64,000 nucleotides of DNA, taken from assembly GCA_009833045.1 (NCBI GenBank), contig WUUP01000007.1, positions 221,041-285,040 on the forward strand, read 5' to 3'. Below, in pieces: positions 38,183 to 59,400 of the stretch (position 1 is its first letter; the number at the start of each line of letters is the position of its first letter). This DNA is from Saprospirales bacterium GYS_P2D. GTDB lineage: Bacteria; Bacteroidota; Bacteroidia; Chitinophagales; Saprospiraceae. The position numbers and the translations under genes are program-made. The notes below the pieces were generated by a model. That model was given only the letters and a program-made list of their open reading frames with translations, had not been told where the DNA came from and made no database searches.

Positions 38183-38478
38183 GTATGCGCATGTCAAAAA
38201 ATATAAAACATAATCACGTTTGATCTATGTGTTTAGTACTTATATGATCATCATATACAAGCACATTCTTCCACCAAAGTACAAGACAACACATATCCTA
38301 CATAATAAATTATTCCTCATTTTCCTCTCTCTGAATTTACACGAATAACCCATATACATCTGAATATCAATCTATTAAGTCATGCATCATTATAATTTTT
38401 CCTTTTTTTTGATTCTTACATATACCCTACATTTTCTCTAATCTTTATCATCTTAGTGTAAAAAGGGAGATAATCGAC
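38183..38478. other. AT-rich intergenic stretch
   Basis: Between the code-25 gene (minus) and the plus-strand gene at 38479. No frame, in either code, that I can support. An ATAATC... GGGAG-like site (AAAAAGGGAG) about 10 bp before 38479 may be its ribosome-binding site. Confidence 0.4.
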
Positions 38479-42328: not shown

Positions 42329-43351
42329 ATGTCAACCGAGAAAAAATATTTCAACATTCTATCAATTGACGGTGGCGGCATAAAAGGATTATACGCTGCA
42401 AGAGTAATTGAGCAAATTGAAAACAAGTTCGGAAATAAGATTTCGGAACACTTCGATATGATTTGCGGCACTTCAACTGGAGGGTTGATTGCGTTGGGAC
42501 TTGCTCTTGAACACCCTGCTCAAAAGATAGCAGAATTTTACACATCGAGAGGTAAGACTATTTTTCCTCACGAAACTTGGTATCAAAGGATCTTTCCGTT
42601 ACTAAAACAGTTTGCATTAGCAAATAAGTACAAGCCCGACAGTCTAAAGAAAGAATTAGTGGGATTTTTTGGTGATGACAAAAAATTAAGAGATTGTCAA
42701 ACGTTGCTCTGTATTCCAGCCTATAACATATCTCTTGGTAGACCGATAGTTTTCAAATACAGTCATAATGAAGGTAATTTTTATAGAGATGGAGAATTAA
42801 ATGTAATTGATGTGGCCTTAGCCACAAGTGCAGCCCCCACATACTTTCCTGTTCATAGGATAAATGAACCCAATCTTCCTAATACCATTTGTGCAGATGG
42901 TGGTATTTGGAGCAATAATCCTGCTCTTATCGGGCTACTCGAAGCATGGGACTACTTTGTGGGAAAGGATAAAGAATTTGATACGATTCGTATCCTTTCA
43001 ATTTCCACAATCTCAAAACCCAAAGGAGAAGAATTTAATAAAGGAAGTTTTTTGGGATGGAATGCAAAATTAATTGAGTCTGCTATGGAAGGACAATCCT
43101 TCTTCACTGACTTCTTTCTCAATAAACTTTCCAAAAACAAAAATTTCCAACTTGATTATAAGAGAGTTACACCTGAGAATATTTCTCCAAATCAATATAA
43201 GAAAATAGAAATGGACTTAGCATCCAAAGAATCCATAGAACTATTAAATAATATAGGATGCAATAGTGGGGTCGAATTTGTCACAAAGGAAAATGCATGG
43301 CTTTCTCAAATCTTCTCTACGACCAAACAATATTTAATTACTAAATCTTAA
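42329..43351 (+). CDS. capV: CBASS effector: patatin-like phospholipase CapV
   Basis: 340 aa patatin-like phospholipase. Visible are the oxyanion-hole motif GGGIKG (about residue 14), the nucleophile elbow GTSTGG (Ser about 48) and the catalytic Asp in ADGGIWSNNP (about 190). It is the first gene of a three-gene operon with a CD-NTase and an E2-like protein, 4 bp before the CD-NTase. In CBASS the cyclic nucleotide made by the CD-NTase activates CapV, which degrades the inner membrane and kills the infected cell. Standard code, no in-frame TGA. Confidence 0.9.
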   Translation: MSTEKKYFNILSIDGGGIKGLYAARVIEQIENKFGNKISEHFDMICGTSTGGLIALGLALEHPAQKIAEFYTSRGKTIFPHETWYQRIFPLLKQFALANKYKPDSLKKELVGFFGDDKKLRDCQTLLCIPAYNISLGRPIVFKYSHNEGNFYRDGELNVIDVALATSAAPTYFPVHRINEPNLPNTICADGGIWSNNPALIGLLEAWDYFVGKDKEFDTIRILSISTISKPKGEEFNKGSFLGWNAKLIESAMEGQSFFTDFFLNKLSKNKNFQLDYKRVTPENISPNQYKKIEMDLASKESIELLNNIGCNSGVEFVTKENAWLSQIFSTTKQYLITKS

Positions 43352-43355
43352 CCTA

Positions 43356-44291
43356 ATGGCTGATTGCCACAATTTATTCTTAGACTTTAACTCCAACTTA
43401 AACGTTACAAAAACTAAAAAAAATAGTCTAATAACTTCTAAAGATGCTTTGAGAGAAAAAATAATAAAGCATTTCAAAGAGCATCACCCCGAATACAAAC
43501 CTGAGTTTTTCATACAAGGGTCGTACAAAATGAATACCATTATACGTACCAAAGATGATACTTGTGATTTAGATGATGGAGTTCACTTTAAAAATAAACC
43601 TGAAGTATCACCAACTACTTTACAAGGATGGGTTTATGATGCAGTCGAAGGACACACAGATGGCGGACAACAACATAAAAATAAATGTATTAGAGTTATT
43701 TACAAAAACGACTATCATATTGACTTACCTGTTTACAAGCAAACCGAAGACGATGATTATCCTTTTCTCGCTGTAAAGGATAAAGATTGGGACGAAGAAG
43801 AAAGTGACCCCAAAGGCTTCGTGAATTGGTATAATGAAAGAAAAACGGAACAGATGGTTCGCTTGACCAAATACTTAAAGGCTTGGGGAGATAAAGATTC
43901 AAAGAAAATGCCGAGCGGATTAGCCATGACCCTTTTTTCTGAAAAATACATTCAAAAGAATGATAGAGATGATATTGCCATGAAGGATACTTTGATTGAA
44001 ATTAGAGATAGGCTCAATGAAAATTGGGAGGCAATTATGCCCACAAAGCCCTGTGACGATGTGCTTTCCAAATACAACGAGACTTTTAAAAATAATTTCT
44101 TTTCTTCACTCGATTCATTTATTGAAGATGCCGAAAAAGCTATTGGACAAGATTCTCAATTAAAAGCAAGCAAACTATGGAGAAAGCATTTAGGAAGCCG
44201 TTTTCCTCTTGGTGAGGATGAAGGATCAGATAATAAAAGGGCAATAATTGGAATTGCAAGTTCTGGAAGTCACAAGCCTTACTTTCATTAA
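43356..44291 (+). CDS. CBASS CD-NTase (cyclic oligonucleotide synthase)
   Basis: 311 aa nucleotidyltransferase. The motif FFIQGSYKMNT (GS) followed by CDLDDGVHF (DxDD) gives the catalytic GS...DxD pattern, and HIDLPVYK supplies the third acidic residue. The helical C-terminal half (KAWGDKDSKKMPSGLAMTLFSE) is typical for CD-NTases with a DLDDGVHF core. Upon phage infection it makes a cyclic di- or trinucleotide; the product cannot be predicted reliably. The C-terminus (GIASSGSHKPYFH) is where E2-type enzymes can conjugate CD-NTases in related systems. Confidence 0.88.
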   Translation: MADCHNLFLDFNSNLNVTKTKKNSLITSKDALREKIIKHFKEHHPEYKPEFFIQGSYKMNTIIRTKDDTCDLDDGVHFKNKPEVSPTTLQGWVYDAVEGHTDGGQQHKNKCIRVIYKNDYHIDLPVYKQTEDDDYPFLAVKDKDWDEEESDPKGFVNWYNERKTEQMVRLTKYLKAWGDKDSKKMPSGLAMTLFSEKYIQKNDRDDIAMKDTLIEIRDRLNENWEAIMPTKPCDDVLSKYNETFKNNFFSSLDSFIEDAEKAIGQDSQLKASKLWRKHLGSRFPLGEDEGSDNKRAIIGIASSGSHKPYFH

Positions 44292-44302
44292 CATATGATG
44301 AC

Positions 44303-44983
44303 ATGTCATGGTTACTCAATGATGTTCAAGAGGCTCTAAAAATTTACGATAAACTCACGGTTAATAGGGAGAAAGGTACTGTTTCAGGAGGGTTTGATAT
44401 AATAAACCCCTATACAAATGAAGTATTAGATACGTTCACTTTGCTGATTACCTTTCCTAAAGAATATCCCAACCAATGTTTGCCAATAGTTAAAGAAGTT
44501 TCGCATAAAATTCCACGAACACCAGATAGACACGTCTATTCTGACGGAAGGCTATGTATTACAACACCAATTAAAGAATTTTTAATCTGTAAAGCTGGAA
44601 TAACCTTGATCCAATTTTTAGAAGACATTCTTCGCCCATTCTTGGCTACTCAAATGGCTATATCTATTGGATGGTTAAATTCTTTTCCCCAAGGAGAATA
44701 TAGTCACGGTTTTGAGGGAATTTACCAATCCTACTCTGAATTTTTCAACCTAAAAGATGTTGATAAAATAGTGGTGGGTTTACAAATGGCACTGAATAGA
44801 AATCAAAGGAATAAGCACTGTTTTTGTGGAAGCGGAAAAAAGTTGAAAAAATGCCATATTAATCAAATTTCAACCTTACACGGAATGTCTAAATCTCAAA
44901 TAGAAAGCGATTTGAAACATTTCATTTTAAAGGCAAACATAGACAAGCCTGAGATTCAAAAAATACTTAAAGCCGAAATTTAG
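44303..44983 (+). CDS. CBASS E2-like protein with SEC-C zinc motif (type II short CBASS)
   Basis: 226 aa. Residues of about 20-140 have the E2 fold: LITFPKEYPNQCLP, a loop, then RHVYSDGRLCITTP with the candidate catalytic Cys in GRLC. The C-terminus carries HCFCGSGKKLKKCH, a SEC-C zinc-binding motif. No E1 or JAB gene follows, so this is the E2-only (short type II) layout, in which the E2 modifies the CD-NTase to control it. It starts 11 bp after the CD-NTase and converges with the code-25 block on the minus strand. Ends in TAG. Confidence 0.82.
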   Translation: MSWLLNDVQEALKIYDKLTVNREKGTVSGGFDIINPYTNEVLDTFTLLITFPKEYPNQCLPIVKEVSHKIPRTPDRHVYSDGRLCITTPIKEFLICKAGITLIQFLEDILRPFLATQMAISIGWLNSFPQGEYSHGFEGIYQSYSEFFNLKDVDKIVVGLQMALNRNQRNKHCFCGSGKKLKKCHINQISTLHGMSKSQIESDLKHFILKANIDKPEIQKILKAEI

Positions 44984-45152
44984 TCTGTTTTCACCTTCCC
45001 CGTCACTTCAAATTTAACCTCATCGTCTTTAAACCCAGTAGACAGGTCTGTGAAATAGGAGGGAAAAGTGAGGTTACTTATCTTTATAGATATACTATAA
45101 TAAAAGGAGAAAGAATATTCATCCATCAAAACACCAATTTTTATGACTGAAA

Positions 45153-45176
45153 AAGATGAGGCTAATCCTCATCTTC
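45153..45176 (-). terminator. Terminator at the end of the code-25 block
   Basis: On the minus strand AAGATGAGG pairs with CCTCATCTT around a 5-nt loop (ATTAG), followed by TTTTT. The TAG stop of the last code-25 gene (45162) lies in the loop. Confidence 0.8.
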
Positions 45177-45467
45177 TGTATAATTTAGGTCATATCGTTC
45201 TTGAATCTCTTCGTATAGGAAACTGTAAATGTTGTCTGAGATAAGATCCAAAGGAGTTTGGCTGGTCAGATCTGATGCTGATGTAGCGAGTCGTAGATTA
45301 CTTATGGCGATCCTCAGGATGTCTGCTGTATAGATAGGCAGATTAGAATTAATGATCTCATGTACCGCATCCAAGTTTTGATCGTAGGTTTTTCAGTGGC
45401 CTTCAGTCTCCATCCAGTCAGTAATTTCAGATTTTACGTCTTCTGTAAGTTGGTATCGTGTAGTCAT
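45162..45467 (-). CDS. Code-25 small acidic protein, hypothetical
   Basis: 101 aa if TGA is sense: ATG at 45467, one in-frame TGA (ETEGH-G-KTYDQ), stop TAG at 45162. In the standard code only an N-terminally shortened 70-codon frame without an ATG remains. The sequence DAVHEIINSNLPIYTADILR and the acidic tail NYTEDED resemble small plasmid-encoded accessory proteins, but I do not recognise a family. The terminator overlapping its stop supports it being the last gene of the minus-strand unit. Confidence 0.6.
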
Positions 45468-45472
45468 GTCTC

Positions 45473-45631
45473 TTATGATAAGAAAATAAATAGTTGTGTT
45501 GCTGCTGTACATCTACGCAGTCAAAGTGCTGAAAGGAATTTTTCTGAAGCTTCGGATCTGTATCCTGCTGCAAGAAAAACACCTTGACTGAATAGTGGAT
45601 GGATAGCTATGAGGATCTGATTTATTTTCAT
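45473..45631 (-). CDS. Possible small code-25 ORF (weak)
   Basis: 52 codons from ATG at 45631 to TAA, with one in-frame TGA (LSAL-G-LRR). Another frame across the same DNA also looks protein-like (DPKLQKNSFQHFDCVDVQQQ), so the true coding frame of this gap between RadC and the last gene is unresolved. A frameshifted remnant is possible. Confidence 0.25.
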
Positions 45632-45701
45632 CAGTGAGAGACATGTATGATACCTCTGAGATGTATTATATGAATGATTGGATACTTAAGACTGACTACT
45701 G

Positions 45702-45729
45702 AAAAAGCCCACAGCATACTGCGAGCTTT
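45702..45729 (-). terminator. Terminator-like hairpin after radC
   Basis: On the minus strand AAAGCTCGCAG pairs with CTGTGGGCTTT (two G-T pairs) around TATG, then TTTTT-like C-interrupted tract (TTC). It starts about 10 bp after the tandem TGA TGA that ends RadC in the standard code. Confidence 0.6.
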
Positions 45730-45738
45730 AGGAGATCA

Positions 45739-46185
45739 TCAGAGCCTACCTTCATCAGCATAAGAATAATAGCGATGTCGACTCACTATCAGATGATCCA
45801 GCACCTTCATTGAGAATAGCTCTGCTAACGTCCTGATACGCTCTGTGAGATCATCATCTTGTGATGATGGAGACATCTCTCCTGACGGATGATTATGCGC
45901 CAAGATGATAGAGCTACAGTTACATTGGACCGCTATCGCAAAGAGTAATGGGATATTGACTATCGTACTGGATACTGTTCCTGCATTAATCATCCGACTT
46001 CCGATAAGTCTGTTCTTCCTATCCAGATATAGACAGTAAAACTCCTCATAGAGGTCCATGATATCTCTATCCCAGATAGACAGACAGTACTGATATACTT
46101 TGAGACTGTTATCCAGATTGATGCTACTCCCTATATCTCGGTGATAGCTCACCTTGATGAAAGGCATGTCTACTTTTGTTTCCAT
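45739..46185 (-). CDS. radC: RadC-like JAB/MPN domain protein
   Basis: 148 aa. The JAMM metal motif is complete: LAHNHPSG then SSQDDDLTERI (HxH...SxxD type). The C-terminus LDHLIVSRHRYYSYADEG is the usual RadC ending and is close to Bacteroidota mobile-element RadC. In the standard code it stops at TGA TGA right after ADEGRL, at the expected length. In code 25 the frame would run on for about 39 more residues to TAA at 45622, through the terminator hairpin. It lies between genes that need code 25, 21 bp after the Replic_Relax-like gene. Confidence 0.8.
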   Translation of the reverse strand: METKVDMPFIKVSYHRDIGSSINLDNSLKVYQYCLSIWDRDIMDLYEEFYCLYLDRKNRLIGSRMINAGTVSSTIVNIPLLFAIAVQCNCSSIILAHNHPSGEMSPSSQDDDLTERIRTLAELFSMKVLDHLIVSRHRYYSYADEGRL

Positions 46186-46206
46186 AGTATTTGTATTTAG
46201 TTTTTG

Positions 46207-47016
46207 TTATTCGAATAATTGTACATTTCATCATGTGCAGTTCTGCCATGTTTCACTTTTACCTTTTTCTCATAGTTGATCCAGTGTGCTAAATAAGAAG
46301 CACACGTGCATATGATCGAAGTAAGATGTAGCTGCTATATGCTCTTGTATCTTTTGCTTGGTACTCTCATGTTCTGCCACAAGCAGAATCACTGGATTCA
46401 CACCTATGTCATACATCTCACTGATAGCTCCAGAAGCTATCATTGGTACATAGGCTCTGAGCTGTTTAATTGCTCTACTGACTCTATGTCATCTGTGCAT
46501 TTCTACACAGATCAGTTTCTTAGCTGTCCCATCTGAGAGCTTGAGGGTCAGATCAGGTTTGATGATCATCTCACCCTGAACAATTTTGGTTGCCGTACTA
46601 TACCTATTGGTTGGTGGCCTCTTCTTTCTTTCGAAATAATAGTCTGAGGATACGATATGTAGTTGTCTCTGTGATAATGTCTGTTTGATCAATATGTGAC
46701 ACCGTATCGTCTGCTTTCTATGCTGGTAGTCTTGATAAAAGAGATGCTTTCCACACTTTCGTCATGATGTATTTGTTTCATCCTTTGCCATGCAATAGCC
46801 AACACCTTTTTTACTCAAGCTATGGATGTCTTCCACTCTGCCGTACTTAGGATCATATCTATATTGCTGTGTGTTGATGAGCTTTCTCTCCCTTAGACTG
46901 GACAGCGTGTGATACAATGTCTTCATACTCCATGACCATCACAAATATTGCAGCTGACTCACCGATAAAAAGCGATAGGTCAAAAGCTGATATAAGATTC
47001 GTTGTCATTTGTCCAT
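46207..47016 (-). CDS. Code-25 Replic_Relax-like protein (replication-relaxation family)
   Basis: 269 aa with TGA as sense; ATG at 47016, stop TAA at 46207, seven in-frame TGA and no other stops. N-terminal winged-helix region: RILYQLLTYRFLSVSQLQYL, then TLSSLRERKLI and RVEDIHSLSKKGVGYC, the layout of the Replic_Relax family that accompanies plasmid and element replication or transfer genes. The C-terminal half looks nuclease-like (IIKPDLTLKLSDGTAKKLICVEMHRG, D...E-x pattern). Standard-code reading breaks it into fragments under 70 codons. It starts 10 bp after the ATPase gene. Confidence 0.72.
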
Positions 47017-47025
47017 CAGTATAGT

Positions 47026-48396
47026 TTAGCTTGTAAATTTTGGCTTAGGAGAATGCCTTTCCAAGATTTCGTCTCTCATATCCCGTGGATAATCATTGAT
47101 CCATGCATCAGGTGGATCATGATTTGGTACGATGGGCTTATAATGACCTGATGCTTTTGCAATCCAATGAATCTGACTTTGGACTTCTCCTGTATTCATT
47201 TGAAGAGCGTTCCTCTTACAAAATACATCCACGAGAGGTATGTACTTCTTGTTCTTCGCCCCACAACTCACCCAAAATTGATAAAAATCAAGACTCGATA
47301 AGTATTCATAAGGCACTCCTGTCTCCTGACCAAATACCTTCAATGCCGTCATACTATTAGCTCAGGCAATCTTCACATGAGCATTAGAAAGCAGACTCCC
47401 GGATATCTTGCCTCATCCATGACCGATGCGCTGTGACATATAGCACAATGAAAGTCCAAATTTCCTTGCCTCCATCAATATCTCAGGTAGGCTATCTCCT
47501 CCAATAAACGTATCTGCCTCATCCAAGATCAAATAGATCTGCTTTCTATGTGGTCAGTGACTGGTACCTCTTGAGAAGGCAAGCGTCTTGATCCTTGCTA
47601 TCAGAAACTTACCTATAGCCTTGCTCACTTCCTTTCCAATTCTTCCCTTTCAGAGATTGATTAAGATCACAGATCCTTTTCTCACTTCACGATCCAGGTC
47701 AACTGTACTCAGTCCAGTTGTCATCTGTAAAAAAAGCTGACTGTTTAATAAACTCTGCAATTTTGTATAGATTGATTGTTTCGTCCTGTCATAGAGATAA
47801 TGATCAAAATGATTCTTAAAGAACTCTCTATACTCCTTTATCTCACAGGACTGTGCTTGCTCCATTAAGTCCTTTCTATGTCAAAGCAATAAGCCTTGTA
47901 AGTCTTTTAGGCTACTGGTTTTCAGTCATAAGAGCACATATATACAGGGTTTAAGAAGAGCTTTCATATGTGTTGTCAAACTACTTTCATCCAACATTTC
48001 CTCAAAAGCATCTACTAAATGATTTGCGTACAGCTCCTTTTCTCTTATGTCTGTCGACCAAAACTCTAAGGGATTGATAGTAGCGACAAAGCCTTTGAGC
48101 AAAATAGGATCTATATAAACCAGCCTTGTTTGATCTCCCTTATACAGCTTCATCTTTTTCAATCATTCCACCATACTGCCATGAGGATCAATGACGATTA
48201 AAGCTATATCTTTTTGCCTCTGACTCCTCCATCGCTGATAGTATACTCGCTGCATCATGAGGCTGCTTTTCCCACATCATGTAGCGCCTGTGATCATAAG
48301 ATGATTTTGTACTTCTCCTCTTGGTATTATCCTACCGATCTTCCAGATTTGCCAATAGCACATCCAAGAAAGCTTAGCACCAATTTGCTGCCGCAT
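47026..48396 (-). CDS. Code-25 HerA/VirD4-like coupling ATPase
   Basis: 456 aa with TGA as sense; eight in-frame TGA, no internal TAA/TAG. Walker A is MITGATGCGKSS (48291-48262 region) with its fourth residue, Gly, encoded by TGA. DIALIVIDPHGSMVEGLK is the strand after the P-loop found in HerA/DUF87-type and T4CP ATPases. Walker B is QIYLILDEADTFIGG, and LCYMSQRIGHGGGKISGSLL contains the conserved Gln. In the standard code it shatters into pieces of 79, 72 and 109 codons. It probably pumps DNA for the code-25 element. The start may be a few codons further in. Confidence 0.78.
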
Positions 48397-48637
48397 CAAG
48401 CTGGTGATATATTTCCTTATTCGTCTTGGGTGTAGGTATTTCATCGGTGTATTTATGAGCTATTAAACTTCCTTCAAGTCTTCCGTTAACTCTTCCATTA
48501 ACCCTTCTTCCCTTTAGGAAAAGAAAACACTTAGCTTGACTAATGTTTTCCAACTTTTTCTTCTCCAGCTTAGTGAGTTTCGCTCCCTTCTTGTATTGAT
48601 TGATGATGGTCCGTGAGGGTTTGGTACAGTACCTCAT
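48374..48637 (-). CDS. Small basic protein overlapping the ATPase start (hypothetical)
   Basis: 87 aa, basic, no in-frame TGA, ends TAA. It overlaps the preceding gene by 68 bp and the ATPase by 23 bp. The repeated VNGRVNGR stretch is low complexity. Dense overlap in a compact minus-strand operon is plausible, but it may also be a spurious frame. Confidence 0.35.
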   Translation of the reverse strand: MRYCTKPSRTIINQYKKGAKLTKLEKKKLENISQAKCFLFLKGRRVNGRVNGRLEGSLIAHKYTDEIPTPKTNKEIYHQLDAAANWC

Positions 48638-48875
48638 ACATATTAGCCATCATCAGACTCATGGGTGTCATGTCTTCTTGGGCTACTCACATCTCAGGCA
48701 TCGTCAATGCTAATGAGATGGATGATTGCACTACAGATAAGACTTCATGATAATACACAGGTACTATACTATCAACTATCCTATGCATCCACTCTTCAAT
48801 ATCGTCCTCTACTTCTCAGATTTCTTCGTCATGGCACTCCTTGACCATCTTCTCCAATTCATACATTGTTGTCAT
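48570..48875 (-). CDS. Code-25 small helical protein, hypothetical
   Basis: 101 aa with TGA as sense (EE-I-G-EVEDD and MPEM-G-VAQED), ATG at 48875, TAA at 48570. Acidic and helical (MYELEKMVKECHDEE). No family recognised. It lies between the 115-aa gene and the ATPase in a co-directional run. Confidence 0.5.
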
Positions 48876-48900
48876 CGGTACACTCTTATCTGATAAAAAC

Positions 48901-49248
48901 CTAAAGTTTTCACTTACGCATATCTTCTATGATTCTTTTCACTTGATCGACACTCTCAAATGGCTGTTTATATGGGAATTGCTTTTGTCTGAGCTTCATT
49001 AGACATAAGAGTTTTTCCCTCAATCCCTTTGACTGCTGCATGATAAATTCTTCTACGTCATCAGTCATTCTTTTCTGTGTGATACGCTTATAGTACTTGA
49101 GATTCAAGAGCTCACTATCTATCTCAATGGCGTACTCACCTTGAGACAAGCGCTCTTTGATCACCTCATATACCTCCGCTGAGATATGTTTTTCATAGCC
49201 ATCGTTAAATACGATGGTATAGAGCTGCTTTTTACCTATTGCTTTCAT
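48901..49248 (-). CDS. Code-25 small protein, hypothetical
   Basis: 115 aa; ATG at 49248 overlaps the previous stop (TAATG). In the standard code the frame ends at a TGA at 48910. In code 25 it adds G-K-L and ends at TAG (48901). Begins MKAIGKKQLYTIVFNDGYEK. No family recognised. Phylogenetic comparison of the C-terminus would show which stop is used. Confidence 0.6.
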
Positions 49249-49964
49249 TATCGAGAATGGATAGATAAAATGGTACTACTTTTTTTCACCTGACTCTGTG
49301 AAGCATTGAATACTTCAGCATAGTTTTCATAGATCATTTTTGGCCCACTACATACTCCTTTTCGAAAACTAATTTTTTGACTCACTTTCATGACTTCTAC
49401 GGCAAGTTGGTCATTTCTAAGCCCCAAGTTTTGAGCTAATTGCGTAAAGTGTTCACACTCAAATAATAACTTCTCATACCTCTTTTCTGCACGAGGATCA
49501 TAGGCTACTCAAAGCTGATAAGCCGTTTGTTTTAATTTTTGCTGAAGGTCATACTTCTTCAATCATTCTTCTCATTCTTTATCATTATTGTTTGTTTCGA
49601 TTTGGTTTCTATCTGATTTCTTTTTGCTTTCGATTTGGTTTCCGTTACCCTGATAGTATGCTCGCATAGGCAAGGTAAGAACAGTGTTTTTATTAGTACG
49701 TTTGGTTTCGATGATACCTTCATGCTCCAATACATTGAGCCATCTATGGATAGTTGATATGCTTACATGAAAATACCTGCTCAGTTGCTTTTGAGATATG
49801 ATGGCTTGTCATGCCTTTAGAGTGAGCTTTTCACATCACAGATAGAATGTTTTTTCTTTGTGATTCACCTTGAGCAAGAGATAACAAAAGAAGCCTAATA
49901 ATCTCCCATTGTGAGCAATGGGGTTATTCAGTAGCTTTCTATGGAGCTTGACGTATCATTTCAT
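49248..49964 (-). CDS. Code-25 replication-initiator/DnaD-like winged-helix protein
   Basis: 238 aa with TGA as sense (six TGA, no other stop). The start MKGYVKLHRKLLNNPI, then LTLKAGQAIISQKQLSRYF and VSISTIHRWLNVLEHEGIIE, matches the N-terminal winged helix found in phage and plasmid replisome organisers (GYxKLxRKLLDNP... KxGQ...). Both family glycines, in the GY and KxGQ positions, are TGA here. The C-terminal region is helical and charged. It is probably the replication protein of the code-25 element. It is 9 bp after the 53-aa gene and overlaps the next start by one base. Confidence 0.68.
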
Positions 49965-49973
49965 AGGTAGAGG

Positions 49974-50135
49974 TTACTCTAAAATCAGTTTATATTCACC
50001 ACGATCATCTCTCTCTGGCACGATAGCGAATAGCTCTATCTCATCACCATAGTCACACTTAATGTACACAGTTATGTCTCATCCAAAGACTTCATCGATT
50101 TTCTTCAACTGATGTATCAATTCAAATAGCTGCAT
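49974..50135 (-). CDS. Code-25 small protein (53 aa), hypothetical
   Basis: 53 codons, ATG at 50135, TAA at 49974, one in-frame TGA in VFG-G-DITVYIKCDYGDEIE. Compact beta-rich sequence. It lies between the recombinase and the initiator-like gene with a 9-bp downstream gap. Confidence 0.5.
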
Positions 50136-50201
50136 GTCACGTTATTAGTGGTTAAAACAATTAGAAAAACTATAAGCTACTTAGGGATCAGAGTAGCGCA
50201 T

Positions 50202-51995
50202 TATATATGATCCGTCTTCCTGCTTCTCCGCCACACCATGATATTCAAAATGAACCCGAAGTGTGTTGATTTCACGTTTAAGACTTAGTATGATATCCTC
50301 TCGCTGTTTTCTAATTTCCGCCTCAAACGTTCTATTATTTTTCCCCGCTGGGCATATCGGGGTATTTTGCTCCTTAAATTCGCTGAAAATGTCGTACAGA
50401 GTTCACTTTTGACGGGTTCTAAGTCACTGATTTTTGAAATAAAGCAATTCTTCTCAAAATCGAACCTTTATAAGTAATTCCCTCATAGTATTGTTACCAG
50501 TACGCCATAAATCGACAGGATTTTCAAAAAGTCATTTCGTCCTATTCAATAATACAGAGATTTGGGTCAGTCAATCTATCTGACTATTCAAGTCTTCTTG
50601 CAATACTTCTAACTCAGAGTTAGTCACCGCCCATTCTTGTTCTAACCTCTCATACAACTTCACATTATTCGTCTGAATCAACTTGTCTTCTAAACTGACA
50701 AGTTTTTCTTTTAGCTTCTTTATATCTTTTTCTTTTCTTGAACTTAATTCTTTCAGTAGTACCTCTGGATTAATTGCCACTTTATTGAATAAGATTTCTA
50801 CTAACTTTCCTACTTGTGAAGGCAATTTCATGCTCTGAAGCAAAGCTTCAAACTCCTCCTCCAATTTGTCTTTTGGAATATACACTTTATGATCACAGCT
50901 ATTGTTAGCACATCCATAATATGGATATACCTTATATGACCTATTTTCCCCTTTCCCTCTATATCTTTTCGTATTCCAGCTGGTAAAGCGACGCTCACAA
51001 TACGGGCATCTGACGATTCATCTTAATGGATGCTCACTATTAATTTTTGGACTTTTCATATACCTATCCTGCGTCATCCTGTGAGTGTATTGTAGCTTAT
51101 CAACGATTTTGAATACAGTGTTTAGATTGATTAATCATTCATGCTGACCATTAATGGGTTCGGTCACTCACCAATCTGGATACAAGACAAATCATCAATA
51201 GTAAAACAATCTATGAAGCTGCAATGCCTTTTCAGGAAAGGTTCTCCAGAGTTTTTTTCCCTTTTTGGCATTAGTACGAAGTCATTCATTCACCCGAAAT
51301 TGCCATAAATCTGCCTGGGTGATAAGAAGATTATCTGCATATAGCTCCAATCCTCTTTTTATCAATGGTCATTTTTCAGGATCAATTTTATCGATATACT
51401 CTTTTGCCGAAATTCTATCCCTAAGATACCCCACTGGTGGTGCGGCAAAAGGCCAATAACCATTTTTTAACCTACTTACTCTTCCATTAGAAGCTCTCTG
51501 CACAATCTTCTTTCTCTCGTATCATGCAATTGCATACTGAATAGTTTTGAACAGATGTCATTCATCGGTAGTCTCATCCATTCCACAACCATCTACCTTC
51601 ACGATTTTCACTCATGAAGACATTATCTCTCCTTCTATTTTGAATGCCTCTCAAATATCATCAGGTCTACTCAAACGACTTGCCTCTGTCACGACTAAAT
51701 GAGTGATTTTTACTTGCTTACTATTCATTTGTCTTAGGTAAGTTATGCATTCATTTAGTGCTTTACGATCTGTAGTCGCACCTGACACTCAAGGCTCAAT
51801 AAACACTCTATCCACTGAGATTTGAGGTGATTGTCTCTCACATCGATCTCTACAAATTCTTTCTTGACCTTCTAATCAATGTCACTCAGTTATCTGCTGT
51901 ACATCAGATACTCTACAGTATATTACTGCTGTAGCAGATGTAGGTAGTTTTTGAGTACATTTAGAGTCTTGAAAACTACCAGTAGCTGTATCAAA
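50202..51995 (-). CDS. Code-25 large serine recombinase
   Basis: About 597 aa with TGA as sense: 19 in-frame TGA, no internal TAA/TAG, stop TAA at 50202. Order: resolvase domain (AVIYCRVSD with the Ser nucleophile; GHGLEGQERICRDR; FIEPGVSGATTDRKAL; VVTEASRLSR), recombinase domain (GYWPFAAPPVGYL), zinc ribbon (LRGIVRCPYCERRF ... YGCANNSC) and coiled coil. TGA gives Gly exactly where the family has Gly: EGHG, EPGVSG and LRGIVRCPYC. No ATG is in frame; TTG at 51995 is the nearest start. An ATG at 52002 in the next frame gives MAFDTATGSFQDSK and would join if one A were missing from the AAAA run near 51960. Confidence 0.85.
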
Positions 51996-52148
51996 GGCCA
52001 TTACTTTTGCCTTTCTTTTAGTTTTAATTTTTCATCACATAGAACGATAAATTAGTACTAAAAACACAGTTATAAGCTATTTCAAAATATTGAGATAGTT
52101 CTAAGCTAATTATTTTACTTTCAATTGCAAGCAGAAAAACAGGAAGCT

Positions 52149-52307
52149 CTATTCTTCCTTTTCCGAGTCCATTTCAACTCTTTTATACTCAGTAAGACAA
52201 ACGTACTTACTCACCGCTTTGATTAATCTGATCAGTTCAGAAAGTGTTTCATCAGATACATGGTCAAATTCTTCTCACAAGATTTTTCTTGCTTCTTCTG
52301 TAGTCAT
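52149..52307 (-). CDS. Code-25 small helical protein (52 aa)
   Basis: ATG at 52307, TAG at 52149. MTTEEARKILGEEFDHVSDE with the Gly encoded by TGA, followed by TLSELIRLIKAVSKY. It looks like a genuine small protein of a type common beside recombinases. Function unknown. Confidence 0.6.
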
Positions 52308-52445
52308 TTATCATCTATGCTATGCCTTGATTCTATTTCGAATCTCCATAAGACACTTGCCTCTCAATGAGATTGATAAATTCTCCAGACTTAGGAGTTA
52401 TTCTCTTATAGTGATAGAATGATTAATTTCAAGAGACAAGATTTT

Positions 52446-52751
52446 CTATTGAAGATGCTTGTATTTTAAGGATTTTTCTCACTTCAGAAACTTTGCTCCT
52501 TTCGATCATTTTACTGGCACTACAAATCAGTAGTCTCCAGTATATTCCTTGAGCCTATCAAAAGCCTTTGTTTCTCTATAGCTAAATCTTATTTCTCAAA
52601 AGGTAGGCTGTTTCTTTTGTACCTGAATAAACACTGTGTAATTATTCAAGTGTTTAAATGCTCTTTCCAAATCAATAATGACAAAAGTCCGCTTCTTAGA
52701 ATCTTGAAAAGAGATGGAAGGATTATAGGCAGTCATGGTAGTTAGTTGCAT
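52446..52751 (-). CDS. Code-25 small protein (101 aa), hypothetical
   Basis: ATG at 52751, TAG at 52446, four in-frame TGA. Sequence FVIIDLERAFKHLNNYTVFI, then QPTFGEIRFSYRET and DYGFVVPVKGSKGAKFLKGE, with glycine at each TGA in turn-like positions. Family unknown. The N-terminal SFQDSKK resembles the SFQDSK at the putative N-terminus of the recombinase. Confidence 0.55.
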
Positions 52752-52852
52752 TGCTAAAATTCTTAGAACCTAATGTCCTAAGTCCGCCCTGCAAGGTGAC
52801 TCATATATACTTTTGAAAAGCTCTCTGTCAAGTTAGATGTACAGTCCTGTGA

Positions 52853-53080
52853 TTACTGTTGGTTATCATACGATATATTAATTTGCTCTTCTTTCGCAAA
52901 CTTCTCATAGCCCGTAAAGTAGAACTGAATTGTCACGCCAAATCCGACTGTTGTTTCTTCTCCAATCTCTACTGAAGCCCTCCCATAAATTGAGTAGATC
53001 TTTATCAAAAGGTGGGAGAGTATTTTGATTACTATAATTGTCACAGACAGCTTTGCTTTATAGAGTATGAAGCGCTCCAA
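52853..53080 (-). CDS. Small hypothetical protein at the right end of the code-25 block
   Basis: 75 codons from TTG at 53080 to TAA at 52853, no in-frame TGA. Ends FTGYEKFAKEEQINISYDNQ. No ATG available. It may be a real first gene of the block or a chance frame. Confidence 0.35.
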   Translation of the reverse strand: MERFILYKAKLSVTIIVIKILSHLLIKIYSIYGRASVEIGEETTVGFGVTIQFYFTGYEKFAKEEQINISYDNQQ

Positions 53081-53211
53081 GATCTATATCAAATGGCAGC
53101 CTAATAGACAGTTATCAGCATTTTTTGTGAATTCTAAAAGAAAGAAAACCTTATAATGATGATAATGACATTTATAAACTTAACTCTAAATTAATTCTAC
53201 CCTACATATGG

Positions 53212-53306
53212 GGTAAACTCAAGTCTATAGAATATAATGAGTATATACGATAGTCACGCTCAATGATACGATAGAAGGTAAACTCAAGTCTATAGAATAT
53301 AATGAG
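53212..53306. repeat. Pair of 30-bp direct repeats at the right edge of the code-25 block
   Basis: GGTAAACTCAAGTCTATAGA plus AATATAATGAG occurs at 53212-53241 and again, identical, at 53277-53306, 65 bp apart. The 35-bp spacer contains CGATAG twice. They lie between the last code-25 gene and the terminator of the giant gene. They may be binding iterons, an element end, or a local duplication. Confidence 0.75.
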
Positions 53307-53463: not shown

Positions 53464-56400
53464 TTATCTGGGAACAACTGAGAAAAAACTATTATTACCT
53501 AAGAATAGACCTTTATCCTGTACGTTGACGTCACCACTGAGGTCAAGATCTCTCAGGAAGTAGCTACTGTTCAATCCGTCGTCAATGATCCACTCTCTGA
53601 GATCATTAGCGTTGATATCGATATCAGCTGATCCAGTAGACTGCTGATCACCGTTACCGGCATACATAGCATATACTCCTGGGGCCACTTCTTTCTGACC
53701 TACGCCCATGAATCCTTTGTAAGAATTGTGACGTCTGAAGTCGTAACTGATTGATCCGTTGATCACTGGCAGCTTGATGTGAGACATAGCCAATAGGTGG
53801 TTTCTGTGCTCTATCACGATGTAGTAATCTAATGTCGGATCAATATCACAACACTCGTATCCTTCGACGAACTCGATCGAACCATCGCTGTGGAGTAACG
53901 CCGCTCGAGTACATACGGTAGACTCTGCAGTCACATCTGATCTCAAGCTGACTAATACCCAATCAGTCACAGTACGTGGATAGTTGCCATTCATTCCAAC
54001 TACTTGGCCATTCTGTACGAATCCGTTGCCCTCAGTTCCATTGTAGAACCATGGAGCCTGATTGTACGGCTGTCCTGTAGCCATCGGCGTACCGAAGAAT
54101 GTCATCGGACGCTGACCCGGTAGATAACCATGCTTATTAAGCGTAGTAGTCATTATACCTGCATCATAATCGTATGGGCCTTCGAGGAAGACAGCTGTAT
54201 TGATTTCTACACACTGACCACCGTTGAAGAATAACTGAACCTCTTCGAAGTCTTCGTCATCCTCACTTTGATCACCATCATCATTGCCTGGAGCAGAATC
54301 TGGGTCAAATGTGAAGCTCTCTACGATCTGAGCTACGTTGCGATAGTCACAGTCCTCAGTCAAGAAGTGTACTACTCTCGCATCGAATGTGAATGTCACT
54401 GACTCATCTACGCCGAGCTCATCCACGAACCAGAAGATTCTGTTCTTAGTCAGCGCACCTTCGTGGCTGATGTTAGCTATATCAGCGTATCCATCAGGTA
54501 AGATATCCTCTACTCCGATACCGAATGCAGGATCTGGACCGTAGTTAATCACTGTGATACTGAACTCTACCTCATCATTAGGAGATACCTGTACTTTATT
54601 CACTTCTTTGATCAACTCAAGATCCGAAGTCTTACCTACAGTAAATGTAGCTGCGCTCTCGTCATCCTCAGATGGCGTACCATCCATGTTGTCAGGAGTA
54701 GAATCTGAATCTGTCTGATCCATAGCTGTCACCTCTGCGAGGTTAGTCACAGCCTGTCCATCCGCCTTAGCAGATACTCCTGCTTCGAATGTCAAGTCGA
54801 TGCTCTCTCCTGGTGCAAGATTAATATCTGTCCAGATGATTCTGTCTCCGAGGAATATTCCGTTGCCAGAAATATTCTTGAAGTCTACACAGAAGTCAAC
54901 TGGTAAGTAATCAGTCACCTCTACGTGAGTCGCATCGTTGTCACCTTCATTAGTCACTGTGATCGTGTAGGTCACTACATCTCTGATCTCAGGATTAGTA
55001 TCGCTCACTGTCTTAGTGATAGATACATCCGTAGTCTCAGGCTGAGCGATCGCATAGTCTTCGTCATCCTCACTTTGATCTCCGTCATCATTGTTTGGCG
55101 TAGAGTCGATATCATCCTGATCAGCAGCTGTGATCTGAGCGATATTCTTATAAGTCACTCCTTCAGCAGGTTCTTGTACGATAGCTTTGAATGATACTCT
55201 GAAGAGAGATAGAGGATCGATCGTGATACCAGTCCATCTGACTGTACTACCATCTATCATACTACCATCGTTATCCATAGAGTTAGGTACTGCTACAAAT
55301 CCATCAGGTAGATAATCTTCTATTGCAACTCCAGTAGCTTGTGCATAACTATTGTTAAACACTGTCAACTGGAATAATACAGTATCACCAGGTTTTGGTG
55401 TAGCATTGTTAACTCTCTTGATCAATTCAAGATCTATCTTATCATCTCCACAATCTACTGGAGCTCCCACTGTTAGTGTGAGTGTATCAGTACAGTTTTG
55501 CGTGTCAGAAGCTATGACTGTATACGTACCTGGAGCTAATCCAGCTTGAGTATTTCCTGATCCACCATTGCTCCAAGTATATGTGTATGGTGCATCTCCA
55601 CCAGAAGCAAGTGCTTCGGCGAAGCCATCATTTCCAATACAAGTCGCATTGATGATCTGGATCATAGACAATTCTACGTTACATCCTGTCTGACATCTAG
55701 GCTCCTTAGTGATAGTCACATCAAGTGAAGCTTGACATCCATTAGCGTCGAATACATCTACTGTGTATACTCCTGCTGCAAGCCCTGATACCTCAGAGGT
55801 AGTGTCACCATTAGACCAGAAGAACTGATATGGAGCTGTTCCATCAAATGCACGTACCATAGCAGTACCATCATTTTCGTTACAACTCTCTTCAGTCTGA
55901 TCCATAAGGACTAATTCTATATCTGCTATAGCATCCTTCACATCAATATCTATTGACTCGAAGCATCCATTGACATCAGTCACTTTGAGTGTATAAGTAC
56001 CACCCTTTAGGTTAGTAATAGTAGGTCCTTCACCACCATTGCTCCAATCGTAAGTATATGGCTCAGCACCTCCAGTCACGACCACTGTAATCTCACCAGT
56101 AGCCGAAGTACCACAAGCGATATCTGTAACAGAAGTCATTATATCAAGATCTGTAAAGCTTCTAGCAATTGTCAGACCAGTCGATACTTCGCAGTCATCT
56201 GCATCTGTAATAGTCACTTTATACTGACCCGCAGATACTCCGCTGATAGTCTGTGTCGTAGCACCATTGCTCCATAAGTATGTGTATGGCCCTACACCAC
56301 CAGAAACATTCACTGTAGCAGATCCATTTTCTCCCTCGCATATTTCGTTGACGATCGTTGTGCTGACAGACACATCACATCTCGTGATAGTCACGAATGC

Positions 56401-59400
56401 ATTATCTTCGTCATCTTCACTTTGATCACCATCATCATTGTCAGGAGTAGAATCTACATCCATTTGATCAGCGTCAGTTACTTGAGCAACATTTAAGTAA
56501 TCAGCGTTTTCGCCAGCTACTACTCGTACATCAAAGTAAAATGTCTTAGTCTCACCCACCTTCAGACTGATATCGCTCCATCTGATGATGTTGCCTAATA
56601 ACTGTCCAGCAGGAGTTATATTAGAGATATTAGTATATCCGCTTGGTATCGGATCTGTTATCTCGACTCCTGTAGCATGAGCTGTCCCTTCGTTAGTCAG
56701 TGTGATCGTGAATCTCACTATCTCTCCTGCAGTTACTACTGACATATTCACTTCTTTCTCTAAGGCAATATCAATCTTGCCTTTGAATCCAGCGTCAATA
56801 TCATTATTGATCTCTCCACTTGACATTGAGAAAATAGCCGTAGTAGCACTTGCCATGTCGATGTCACTATCATTCGTGCCATCACCTTGATTCTGAAGTG
56901 TCACAGTATATCCAGTCGGTGGAGTGAATCTCACTCTGTAATCTCCAGGGAAGATATTGTTGAACTGGTAAGAACCATCATCCTCTGTAGTCGTAGACGC
57001 TAATGTCACTCCCTCAGGGTTTAATAATTCTACATAGACATCTCCTAATCCAGGCTCATCGCTATCGAATATACCGTCACAATCGTAGTCTAACCATACT
57101 TGGTCTCCGATCGATGTATTCTGATAGTATCCTGCATCTATCGTCTTGTCGCTTTCGTTGACATCGAGTGTGATGAGGTGAGACTCTTCAGTCACCATAT
57201 TCACATCACTATCTTTGTCATCATCTGTTCTATTTGGTAATGTAATAGAGTAACCAGAAGGTGTCACGAATCTCACATAGTACTGTCCAGCACTTAGGTT
57301 GTTGAACATGTACATACCGTTTTCGTCAGTTTGTACTCTTCTGATTTCGTTCTTATTAGCATCGAGCAAGATAACAGTCACGTTAGGTATTCCTACTTCA
57401 CCTGCATCCTGCATACCATTTCTATTAGCATCTATCCATACTTGATCTCCAAGAGCTGCTGTACAGTCTTCTTCCTCTTCGATGACTACATCGAGAGTAG
57501 TGAAGCATCCGTTAGCATCAGTCACAAGTACTTGGTAAGTACCTGCAGCTAATCCTACAGCCATTCTTGCAGTCTGCATGTTAGCATCATTCCACTCATA
57601 TGTATATGGTGCAGCACCTCCAGTCGCAGATACAATAGCCATACCTACAGCACCTTCGTTACATGTTGCATTAGATTTCTCTTCTAATGTCACCAATACA
57701 TCAGCTGTCTGATCGATCACTTGGACAGTCGCTCTGTTTTCACAGCCATTCTGTCCTCTTACTACTACAGTATAAGATCCAGCGATTGATACTTCAGGAT
57801 TGCTCATACTGCTCGAGAATCCATTCGTACCTACCCAGCTCACTACAGTACCGTTGGTGTTCACTGTGAGTGACACTCTCTCATTAGTACATGTGATGAA
57901 TGCATCTTGAGCCTCAATAAATGGAAGCTCTGTGTCATCCACTACTATCACGGACTGGCTCGCTGTACATCCCGCAGCAGTAGTCACTGTCGCAGTATAT
58001 GTACCTCCTTGGCTCACCTCTGGAGACTGAGCTGATGATGTGAATCCATTAGGTCCAGTCCAGCTAAATGTCACTCCAGCAGTAGTCGAACTCGCTGTAA
58101 GTGTCACTGATGGTTCGAGACACGTGATAGATCCGCCCGTCGCACTCACGTCAGGAATATCTGCATCGATACCTACGACTACTGACTCAGTAGCTGTACA
58201 TCCCGCAGCATTAGATACTGACACTGTATATGTACCTGGCACTGTCACAGAAGGCTGTGCTTGAGCACTGGTATATCCTTCTGGGCCTGTCCAACTAATG
58301 TTAGTAGCATTAGTAGACAATCCTAATGTCACAGAAGGTTGAGTACATGTGATCGTACCTCCTGTAGCTGTCAGCGTGATAGCATTTCCACCATCAACTG
58401 TCGCACTACATGTAGTAGTACATCCATTCTCATCTGTAAGAGTCACTGTGTATGTACCTGGCAACAAGTTAGTCGCAGTAGCACCAGTCTGTCCGTCAGA
58501 CCACTGATAAGTGATCGTACCTGAACCATTGATGGCCTGTACTGTGATAGCTCCATTCGCCTCTCCACATGTAGATGGAGTGACATTAGTGATATTGCAG
58601 CTGAGTGCATTGCTATCTTCTAATGTCGCACTACATGTAGTAGTACATCCATTCTCATCTGTGATAGTAACGGTGTATGTACCTGCAGCAAGATTATTCG
58701 CTGTAGCTGTCGTCTGTCCATCAGACCATAAGTACGAGATCGTACCTGATCCATTAGAAGCTTGTACTGTGATCTGACCATTAGCGCTACCGCATGTAGG
58801 CTGAATTACATTATTAATGGTACATGTGAGGTCACTTCTGCTTGGTACAGTCACTTCGCATGTGGTCGTACATCCGTCACCGTCTGTAGCCGTCACCGTG
58901 TGTACTCCTGCAGTTAAGTTATTCGCAGTAGCATTCGTTTCGCCATTATCCCATAGGTATGTGATAGTTCCAGTACCTCCATTTACTTGTACTGTTGCTA
59001 CACCATTCGCAGCTTCACAGTCAGCAGGACTGTTGACATTGATAGTACAGCTAAGCTCTTTCACGATAAGTACGAGTACCTCATCCGATACACATCCGTC
59101 ATTAGTGACTGTATATGTACCTGCCTGAGTATAGTCAGTACCATTCCACGTGAATACTTCACCTGCACAGATAGTCTCCTCTGTTCTGATATCCGCTGGC
59201 TTCTGAGTAACTGTCACCACTAACTGGTTATCAGCTACACAGCCCGCAACAGCATCTGTATATGTACCAGCAGCATTCACTGTGATACCGTTCCATGTGA
59301 ACGGTAAGTCCTCTTCACATACTGTACGGTTCTCTACAATCGGTGCCGGCTTCTCTGTCACTGTCACCACTAACTGGTTATCAGCTACACAGCCCGCTTG

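What the first reader, a model, noticed from the sequence alone, without database searches (positions are those of the whole stretch)
45162..53080. A block of genes written in genetic code 25 (TGA = glycine) inside a standard-code Bacteroidota contig
Seen: on the minus strand, ten co-directional frames become whole proteins only if TGA is sense. I traced about 50 in-frame TGA codons and no internal TAA/TAG. Each gene ends with TAA or TAG. Known: TGA=Gly is code 25, used by Absconditabacteria (SR1) and Gracilibacteria. Inference: a mobile element from such an organism lies in, or was assembled into, a Saprospiraceae-like genome. A standard-code cell could not express its recombinase, ATPase or replication protein, so this would be a case of DNA transferred across a genetic-code barrier, or evidence of physical association (predation or epibiosis) between the two lineages.
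Basis: partly seen in the sequence, partly recalled or inferred. Interest (0 to 1): 0.95.

Follow-up and report, generated by a model that had tools for sequence, protein, structure and literature searches.

The report
Mobile element crossing genetic codes
A 7.8-kb stretch of mobile-element genes that read whole only if TGA is a sense codon lies inside the contig of a bacterium in which no tRNA for that codon was found, so DNA likely moved there from an Absconditabacteria-type cell into a host that would be unable to express it.

Summary
Confirmed and sharpened. Ten minus-strand frames between 45162 and 52751 hold 55 in-frame TGA and no TAA/TAG in 2280 codons. TGA reads as glycine: standard-code recombinase homologues have G in 335 of 868 cells at TGA columns and no W. 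CGA/CGG very likely read as tryptophan, so the code is the Absconditabacteria double code, not table 25 alone. The foreign block is about 45141-52970: from 52976 the DNA matches transposase copies elsewhere in the same host genome. Cargo: large serine recombinase, coupling ATPase, DnaD-like loader, RadC, two ocr-like anti-restriction proteins. Unexpectedly, the block has a host-like oligonucleotide signature: 0 CTAG (24.8 expected), against 7-37 in 51 equal-sized code-25 pieces. A second genome of the same phylum, G1044, carries a recombinase in the same double code, and a second recoded frame lies at 37295-38224. I read it as a real cross-code transfer (0.6); an assembly chimera is not excluded, because no reads could be mapped. 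Shuttling between epibiont and host is the bold reading.

The parts
45141..52970 (-). Whole foreign block (approximate edges), 7.8 kb, all named genes on the minus strand
   Evidence: Left edge: terminator-like hairpin 45155-45172 just past the last stop (read by eye); right edge: homology to host copies of a transposase starts at 52976
45162..45512 (-). Ocr-like acidic protein, 116 aa, paralogue (27% identity) of 48570-48875
   Evidence: phrog_2568 ocr-like anti-restriction E=0.003; D+E 22, K+R 7; alignment A4
45622..46185 (-). RadC-like JAB-domain protein, 187 aa, 4 TGA
   Evidence: Pfam RadC E=5e-36
46207..47016 (-). Winged-helix protein, 269 aa, 7 TGA; possibly a replication/relaxation initiator
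   Evidence: phrog_9381 'replication initiation by nicking' E=2.5e-4; model mean pLDDT 58, matches mainly to winged-helix regulators; 2 relatives
47026..48444 (-). Coupling-type ATPase (TrwB/TraG-like), 472 aa, 8 TGA; the Walker-A glycine G56 (motif name recalled) is TGA
   Evidence: Pfam TrwB_AAD_bind E=5e-9, DUF87 E=3e-8; codons
48570..48875 (-). Ocr-like DNA-mimic (anti-restriction) protein, 101 aa
   Evidence: phrog_2568 E=1e-8; Pfam ocr E=1.4e-4, under the cut-off; T7 Ocr in the PDB E=8e-4; D+E 21, K+R 3
48901..49248 (-). Small protein of unknown family, 115 aa, 1 TGA
   Evidence: no convincing family
49248..49964 (-). DnaD-like helicase loader, 238 aa, 6 TGA
   Evidence: phrog_2514 E=5e-25
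49974..50135 (-). Small protein, 53 aa, 1 TGA
   Evidence: frame read
50181..52067 (-). Large serine recombinase, 628 aa, 21 TGA
   Evidence: Pfam Resolvase E=7e-23 and Zn_ribbon_recom E=8e-10; phrog_95 integrase E=2e-46
52446..52751 (-). Orphan protein, 101 aa, 4 TGA, first gene of the run
   Evidence: no family
52976..53220 (+). Host DNA: 3' remnant of an integrase-core (IS3-like, name recalled) transposase, right border of the block
   Evidence: 73% to G000 C4 51850-52096 and 70% to C4 47247-47405; the longer copy's gene matches rve E=4e-19
42329..44983 (+). Left neighbour: patatin, DncV-like nucleotidyltransferase and SEC-C protein (CBASS-like, name recalled), standard code
   Evidence: 63% DNA identity over 1.6 kb to relative G033
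53464..63963 (-). Right neighbour: host adhesin-like repeat protein running to the contig end
   Evidence: last 400 residues: 96% paralogue in G000 C3, 83% in same-genus G003
37295..38224 (-). Second recoded frame, 310 codons, 11 TGA, 0 TAA/TAG; orphan; TGA meaning untested

Best explanation
This is a 7.8-kb run of mobile-element genes that are whole only with TGA as a sense codon (read as glycine, and very likely with CGA/CGG as tryptophan, the Absconditabacteria code), lying between standard-code genes, and it was likely transferred there from an Absconditabacteria-type cell into a chromosome where it would be translationally silent. Shown: the reading frames, the codon meanings by homology, host DNA at the right edge and host-family genes at the left, no UCA tRNA in the host tRNA loci scanned, and a host-like tetranucleotide signature. 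Inferred mechanism: in its own cells the element is a circle that can integrate by its large serine recombinase; the 12 best-scoring relatives all end in or within 72 bp of a tRNA or tmRNA gene, 14 of 19 TGA-bearing relatives examined do. Its coupling ATPase likely hands DNA to a secretion channel and the two ocr-like proteins would blunt type I restriction, but only in a cell that reads TGA as glycine. The copy here has its recombinase in the middle and no tRNA nearby, so it was likely inserted as a circle opened between the last gene and the first, by a route other than its own integrase. The lack of CTAG suggests that the lineage of the element had earlier, repeated contact with CTAG-poor hosts like this one.
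For: Code. Flanks: transposase remnant with copies in the host genome, adhesin paralogues, CBASS-like genes akin to relative G033. No UCA anticodon in 30 host tRNA loci scanned of 31 hits. Host-like signature: r 0.67 to host against at most 0.48 for 92 code-25 pieces; 0 CTAG, against 7-37 per code-25 piece, 0-8 per host piece and 0-10 per low-GC host piece; synonymous shuffles keep 5 or more CTAG in all 1000. Second genome of the phylum with a double-code recombinase: G1044, 99% complete, 0 contamination, 362-kb contig. Recent or protected: zero nonsense gives a 95% upper bound of 1.1% neutral divergence. Recombinase position.
Against: No reads or coverage; the contig ends 11 kb to the right, inside a repetitive gene with a 96% paralogue on another contig, and eleven small contigs of the bin read as N. 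No shared att-like repeat over 9 bp at the two edges and no empty site found. Only G000 has a TGA-bearing match among 398 family genomes. By dinucleotide distance the block is nearer to some code-25 genomes (42-54 for G079, G075, G080, G081) than to the host (78). With CTAG left out the block's r to the host falls to 0.55, which 1 of 92 code-25 pieces equals. Five of 19 TGA-bearing recombinase relatives have no tRNA in the DNA held, so its absence here proves little by itself. For G1044 only 1.5 kb was seen and its 3' flank matched none of 98 other relatives, so that flank is not shown to be host.
Confidence: 0.6

Rival explanations
1. Assembly chimera: a separate molecule (plasmid or chromosome piece of a co-occurring Absconditabacterium) was joined to host contigs at the transposase remnant and next to the CBASS-like genes.
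For: No read evidence; transposase remnant at the right edge and repetitive adhesin behind it; 12 of 28 contigs are 1-6 kb, which suggests a short-read assembly; Shulgina and Eddy report code-25 contamination in Chloroflexi assemblies (PMC8629427, passages).
Against: Needs two false joins; both neighbours look like host DNA; tetranucleotide composition of the block is host-like, not code-25-like; a second recoded frame lies 7 kb away beyond standard-code genes; a second genome of the phylum has a similar recombinase.
Confidence: 0.22
2. One-off recent transfer from an unsampled Absconditabacteria lineage whose own genome is CTAG-poor; no shuttling, the host-like signature is coincidence.
For: Zero nonsense changes imply recent arrival; dinucleotide distances fit G079, G075 and G080 better than the host; only part of the code-25 genomes was sampled.
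Against: CTAG ratios of 18 of 19 genomes sampled are 0.68-1.22 (G122, 54% GC, 0.34); of 28 clearly recoded samples, 26 are 0.54-1.27 and two lower (G115 0.48; one 3.7-kb piece 0.31); 0 of 92 code-25 pieces reach the block's correlation to the host.
Confidence: 0.14
3. An element resident in standard-code hosts that is expressed there through its own suppressor, as in recoded phages.
For: Host-like signature and intact frames.
Against: No tRNA found in the window or the block and none with UCA in the host tRNA loci scanned; two meanings (TGA and CGA/CGG) would both have to be supplied; the relatives sit in code-25 chromosomes.
Confidence: 0.03
4. Ordinary standard-code genes that decayed by nonsense mutations.
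For: None beyond the TGA codons.
Against: 55 TGA against 0 TAA/TAG; Gly conserved at TGA columns; relatives share the code.
Confidence: 0.01

Closest known systems
Large serine recombinases of code-25 genomes (e.g. G080 C89, very likely database record P0010)
   Same: 44% identity, TGA = Gly, CGA/CGG at Trp columns
   Different: The 12 best-scoring relatives end in or within 72 bp of a tRNA or tmRNA gene (14 of 19 TGA-bearing ones examined); ours is internal and has no tRNA near
Recombinase of G1044, a genome of the same class as the host
   Same: Same double code; inside a long contig of a 99% complete genome; no tRNA in the 1.5 kb seen
   Different: Different subfamily (37% to ours, 47% to P0014); rest of the element not seen
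Absconditabacteria/Gracilibacteria phages of PMC10746230 (abstract and one results section read)
   Same: Mobile DNA facing the code-25/code-11 boundary
   Different: Those that may infect both host types avoid in-frame TGA; this block is full of them and would be silent in the standard-code host
Integrative and mobilizable elements (PMC5704250, search listing only; features recalled)
   Same: Integrase plus coupling and putative replication genes without a full secretion system
   Different: No confirmed relaxase or oriT; written in another genetic code than its present chromosome
T7 Ocr (gp0.3)
   Same: Acidic small proteins, sequence match E=8e-4 for one
   Different: Two diverged copies; fold not confirmed

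Membership tests
Absconditabacteria genetic code (TGA=Gly, CGA/CGG=Trp; PMC8629427) | TGA = glycine | tested here: met
   335 of 868 cells G, 0 W, at TGA columns in standard-code homologues
Absconditabacteria genetic code (TGA=Gly, CGA/CGG=Trp; PMC8629427) | CGA and CGG = tryptophan | tested here: met
   At 4 of 7 TGG columns of our recombinase G080 has CGA or CGG. Our CGA: column 75 is Y/F/H in 44 of 46, column 536 is TGG in G1044, column 589 is uninformative (T 19, R 3 of 40). Our CGG rests on one column (258: L 36, F 4 of 46), so CGG alone is weaker
Absconditabacteria genetic code (TGA=Gly, CGA/CGG=Trp; PMC8629427) | tRNA-Gly(UCA) in the same genome | tested here: not met
   Host genome: none seen in 30 loci scanned of 31 tRNA hits; so the host is not filed as a code-25 organism
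Large serine recombinase / integrase | Resolvase N-terminal domain and zinc ribbon | tested here: met
Large serine recombinase / integrase | Pfam Recombinase domain PF07508 | tested here: not met
   Not hit at E 0.01; also absent in the precomputed domains of P0001-P0014; phrog_95 integrase hit E=2e-46, so the family is kept with this domain diverged or missing
Large serine recombinase / integrase | Attachment sites at the element ends in this copy | tested here: not met
   No shared word over 9 bp at the edges, recombinase not at an end; such sites can share only a few bases (recalled), so this speaks against self-integration, not against the family
Integrative and mobilizable element | Coupling ATPase | tested here: met
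Integrative and mobilizable element | Relaxase and oriT | tested here: inconclusive
   Only a weak nickase-type profile match; low-confidence model; oriT not tested
Ocr-type anti-restriction protein | Sequence and acidic charge | tested here: met
   the Pfam score is below its cut-off
Ocr-type anti-restriction protein | Ocr fold | tested here: inconclusive
   pLDDT 61, no usable structural match

The most novel reading that the evidence does not exclude
A two-host element that straddles two genetic codes: its genes work only in an Absconditabacteria-type epibiont or predator, but its DNA is tuned to the genome of the partner bacterium (CTAG-free, host signature) because it repeatedly passes through that chromosome as a silent passenger, which serves as a reservoir from which epibionts feeding on the host DNA pick it up again.
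Probability: 0.3. Interest if true: 0.94.

Novelty: new variant of a known kind. Interest (0 to 1): 0.78.

Why it matters
Genetic-code changes are commonly expected to isolate a lineage from gene flow. A fully recoded element in a standard-code contig, with a recoded recombinase in a second genome of the same phylum, would show that DNA crosses the barrier even when the proteins cannot be made, and would give a sequence handle on which bacteria Absconditabacteria live on. The partner described in the paper I looked into is a gammaproteobacterium (Halochromatium; PMC8080830, passages). The mismatch between code and oligonucleotide signature offers a general, testable marker for elements that cycle between an epibiont and its host.

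Tried and rejected
No match: viral contigs for the recombinase, the coupling ATPase, the G1044 recombinase and the second recoded frame; phages and plasmids by DNA of the block, plasmids by G1044 DNA, plasmids and phages by recombinase protein; plasmids by the second recoded frame. The scan of named genome contigs gave one locus, L032. One phage record has a distant coupling ATPase, not followed. The coupling ATPase matches 1 of 353 class genomes at E 1e-30, with no stop codon inside the match, so the element does not look chromosomal there. A 52-codon open frame at the left edge (44983-45138 minus), taken for a truncated host gene, matched relatives only at chance level. Comparison of the edges for att repeats: nothing over 9 bp. 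The same-genome transposase copy shows no match to the left flank. Structure models of the winged-helix protein and the ocr-like protein were too weak to use. The rule that relatives end at a tRNA or tmRNA held for the 12 best-scoring loci but, when I extended it, for only 14 of 19 TGA-bearing loci; 10 of 11 further loci whose match held no TGA (one holds a TAA) have a tRNA or tmRNA at or within about 130 bases of the frame end. Idea that the whole 37-53 kb is one recoded island: not pursued, because the genes between are standard-code and partly akin to a relative. Papers: searches (20 papers, 15 listed; 2; Absconditabacteria with Saprospiraceae; 3; genetic code, horizontal gene transfer, barrier, stop codon reassignment; 6; broad; CTAG; 12, 10 listed; 70, 10 listed; at least 5 of Absconditabacteria, Bacteroid, host, code 25, contig, horizontal gene transfer; 11, 10 listed): no listed title or abstract start reports a recoded element in a standard-code chromosome; the full texts were not read for this. 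Opened were only PMC10746230 (abstract, one section), PMC8629427 (passages) and PMC8080830 (passages). Dropped before counts: the loci of G122, G061, G135 and ten further short, mainly standard-code or masked loci of the class, and loci under 7.83 kb give no piece; G122; in the host pool three low-GC loci, shown apart.


Full report
The observation. On the minus strand, eight main frames between 45162 and 52067 contain 50 in-frame TGA and no internal TAA or TAG; each ends in TAA (6) or TAG (2). With two smaller frames the total is 55 TGA, 81 GGN and 0 TAA/TAG in 2280 codons. A scan of 664 kb of the host genome, window included, for TAA/TAG-free, TGA-bearing frames outside standard ORFs puts four frames of this block among the best five; the best hit outside the window is nine orders of magnitude weaker than the recombinase frame.

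What the codons mean. Against 46 standard-code recombinase homologues, TGA columns carry G in 335 of 868 cells and W in none, comparable with AGA columns carrying R in 38%. The fourteen closest database proteins (36-48% identity) have G in 91 and W in 96 of 280 cells at our TGA columns. For one of them, P0010, the likely source DNA is at hand (G080 C89, a contig of the same length, 38162 bases) and its recombinase has 27 TGA, so the W letters come from translation with TGA = Trp. At our TGG columns the same proteins have W in 32 and R in 53 of 98 cells, and at 4 of the 7 TGG columns G080 has CGA or CGG. In standard-code homologues our CGA column 75 is Y, F or H in 44 of 46; CGA column 536 shows no R among the residues listed and is TGG in G1044; CGG column 258 is L or F in 40 of 46; a third CGA column, 589, is uninformative. 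In L032, a code-25 locus found by the scan of named contigs, one of two CGA columns is R in 34 homologues, so it does not clearly share the second change. For our block CGA and CGG very likely mean Trp, CGG on thinner evidence. TGA = Gly with CGA/CGG = Trp is the code that Shulgina and Eddy predicted for Absconditabacteria (PMC8629427, passages).

The cargo. RadC-like JAB protein, coupling ATPase with a TGA-coded Walker-A glycine, DnaD-like helicase loader, large serine recombinase, a winged-helix protein with a weak match to nicking initiators, and two acidic ocr-like proteins. This is the gene set of a small mobilizable or integrative element; a relaxase and oriT were not established. Records P0006 and P0067 (recombinase and coupling ATPase) both list 8296 bp as their longest contig; I infer, without seeing the DNA, that they are one contig and that elements of this size exist elsewhere.

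Edges. The left neighbour is a CBASS-like trio ending at 44983, 63% identical over 1.6 kb to a relative's. At the right, 52976-53220 matches two places of the host genome itself at 70-73%; the longer one is the 3' end of an integrase-core transposase. Then follows an adhesin-like gene whose last 400 residues have a 96% paralogue in the same genome and an 83% match in a same-genus genome, up to the contig end at window 64000. No att-like repeat was found, nor an empty site in 60 relatives.

Relatives and integration rule. Of 353 genomes in the class of a code-25 relative, 41 have a recombinase match at E 1e-15, 47 matches in all. In the 12 best-scoring ones, all with in-frame TGA, the recombinase frame ends inside a tRNA or tmRNA gene in 10 and within 72 bp of one in 2. 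Seven further TGA-bearing loci gave 2 with a tRNA and 5 without one in the DNA held, so 14 of 19; 10 of 11 loci without in-frame TGA in the match also have one. Our copy has its recombinase in the middle of the block and the window has no tRNA. If the common pattern holds for our subfamily (unproven), the block is the circular form opened elsewhere, so it was not placed here by its own integrase, which the host could hardly translate: none of the 30 host tRNA loci scanned (of 31 hits) has a UCA anticodon.

Composition. The block's tetranucleotide z-score profile correlates 0.67 with the host; 92 equal-sized pieces of code-25 genomes reach at most 0.48 (mean 0.27), host pieces average 0.74 (minimum 0.40). 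Without CTAG the block still has 0.55; one of the 92 pieces equals that. CTAG itself is absent: 0 against 24.8 expected, 7-37 in 51 code-25 pieces, 0-8 in 30 host pieces (17 of them zero), 0-10 in 9 low-GC host pieces. Shuffling synonymous codons within the block gives 13 CTAG on average and never fewer than 5 in 1000. Two same-genus stretches correlate 0.44 and 0.59 with the block, four of other genera 0.15-0.35. Against this, dinucleotide distance puts the block nearer to G079, G075, G080 and G081 (42-54) than to the host (78). Since no nonsense change occurred, neutral divergence since insertion is under about 1.1% (95% bound), too little to ameliorate after arrival. So the signature was acquired before this insertion, while the genes were still under selection in a TGA = Gly cell. 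I infer earlier contact with CTAG-poor hosts; an unsampled CTAG-poor donor is the alternative.

Not alone. A phylum-wide sample of 395 genomes gave one further match at E 1e-25, G1044 (same class, 99% complete, 0 contamination, 362-kb contig), with 14 TGA inside. The 433 codons seen have 9 TGA, and its CGA and one of its two CGG fall on columns that are W in 43 of 46 homologues. Its 3' flank was not found in 98 other relatives, so I cannot show that the flank is host. In 398 family genomes only G000 has a TGA-bearing match. In our own window a second frame, 37295-38224 minus, is free of TAA/TAG with 11 TGA and is not reproduced in 3000 shuffles; no family or relative was found, so its code is untested, though Gly content (8 GGN plus 11 TGA in 310 codons) would be ordinary if TGA = Gly.

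Verdict. That the genes are recoded is beyond reasonable doubt from the sequence; that they sit in the host chromosome is likely (0.6) but needs reads. The mechanism of arrival, the partner and the shuttling are inferences. PMC8080830 (passages) describes an Absconditabacteria relative that preys on Halochromatium and has ComEC and ComEA, probably for uptake of host DNA, which makes a return route plausible.

Noticed in passing
window 37295-38224 minus: Second TAA/TAG-free frame with 11 TGA (ATG near 38182), orphan, 7 kb left of the block beyond standard-code genes.
   Followed up: partly
window 42329-44983: CBASS-like trio (patatin, DncV-like cyclase, SEC-C protein); all stops TAA/TAG and only 1 CGA/CGG codon in the three genes, so nearly readable in either code.
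   Followed up: partly
G000 C26 and C3: C26 ends inside a long adhesin gene and C3 appears to as well; their last 400 residues are 96% identical, probably a repeat that broke the assembly.
   Followed up: partly
G000 (host genome): The host nearly lacks CTAG (observed/expected 0.03) and CGCG (0.00) in 300 kb sampled; cause unknown.
   Followed up: no
window 53212-53241 and 53277-53306: Perfect 30-bp direct repeat spaced 65 bp between the transposase remnant and the adhesin; not found elsewhere in the host pieces held.
   Followed up: partly
PP438423.1 11856-13070: Microcystis phage Mwe-JY31 encodes a coupling-type ATPase 27% identical to ours over 83%.
   Followed up: no
P0001-P0014: Database proteins from code-25 organisms appear to be stored with W for TGA (translated with TGA = Trp), so many of their glycines are wrong.
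   Followed up: yes
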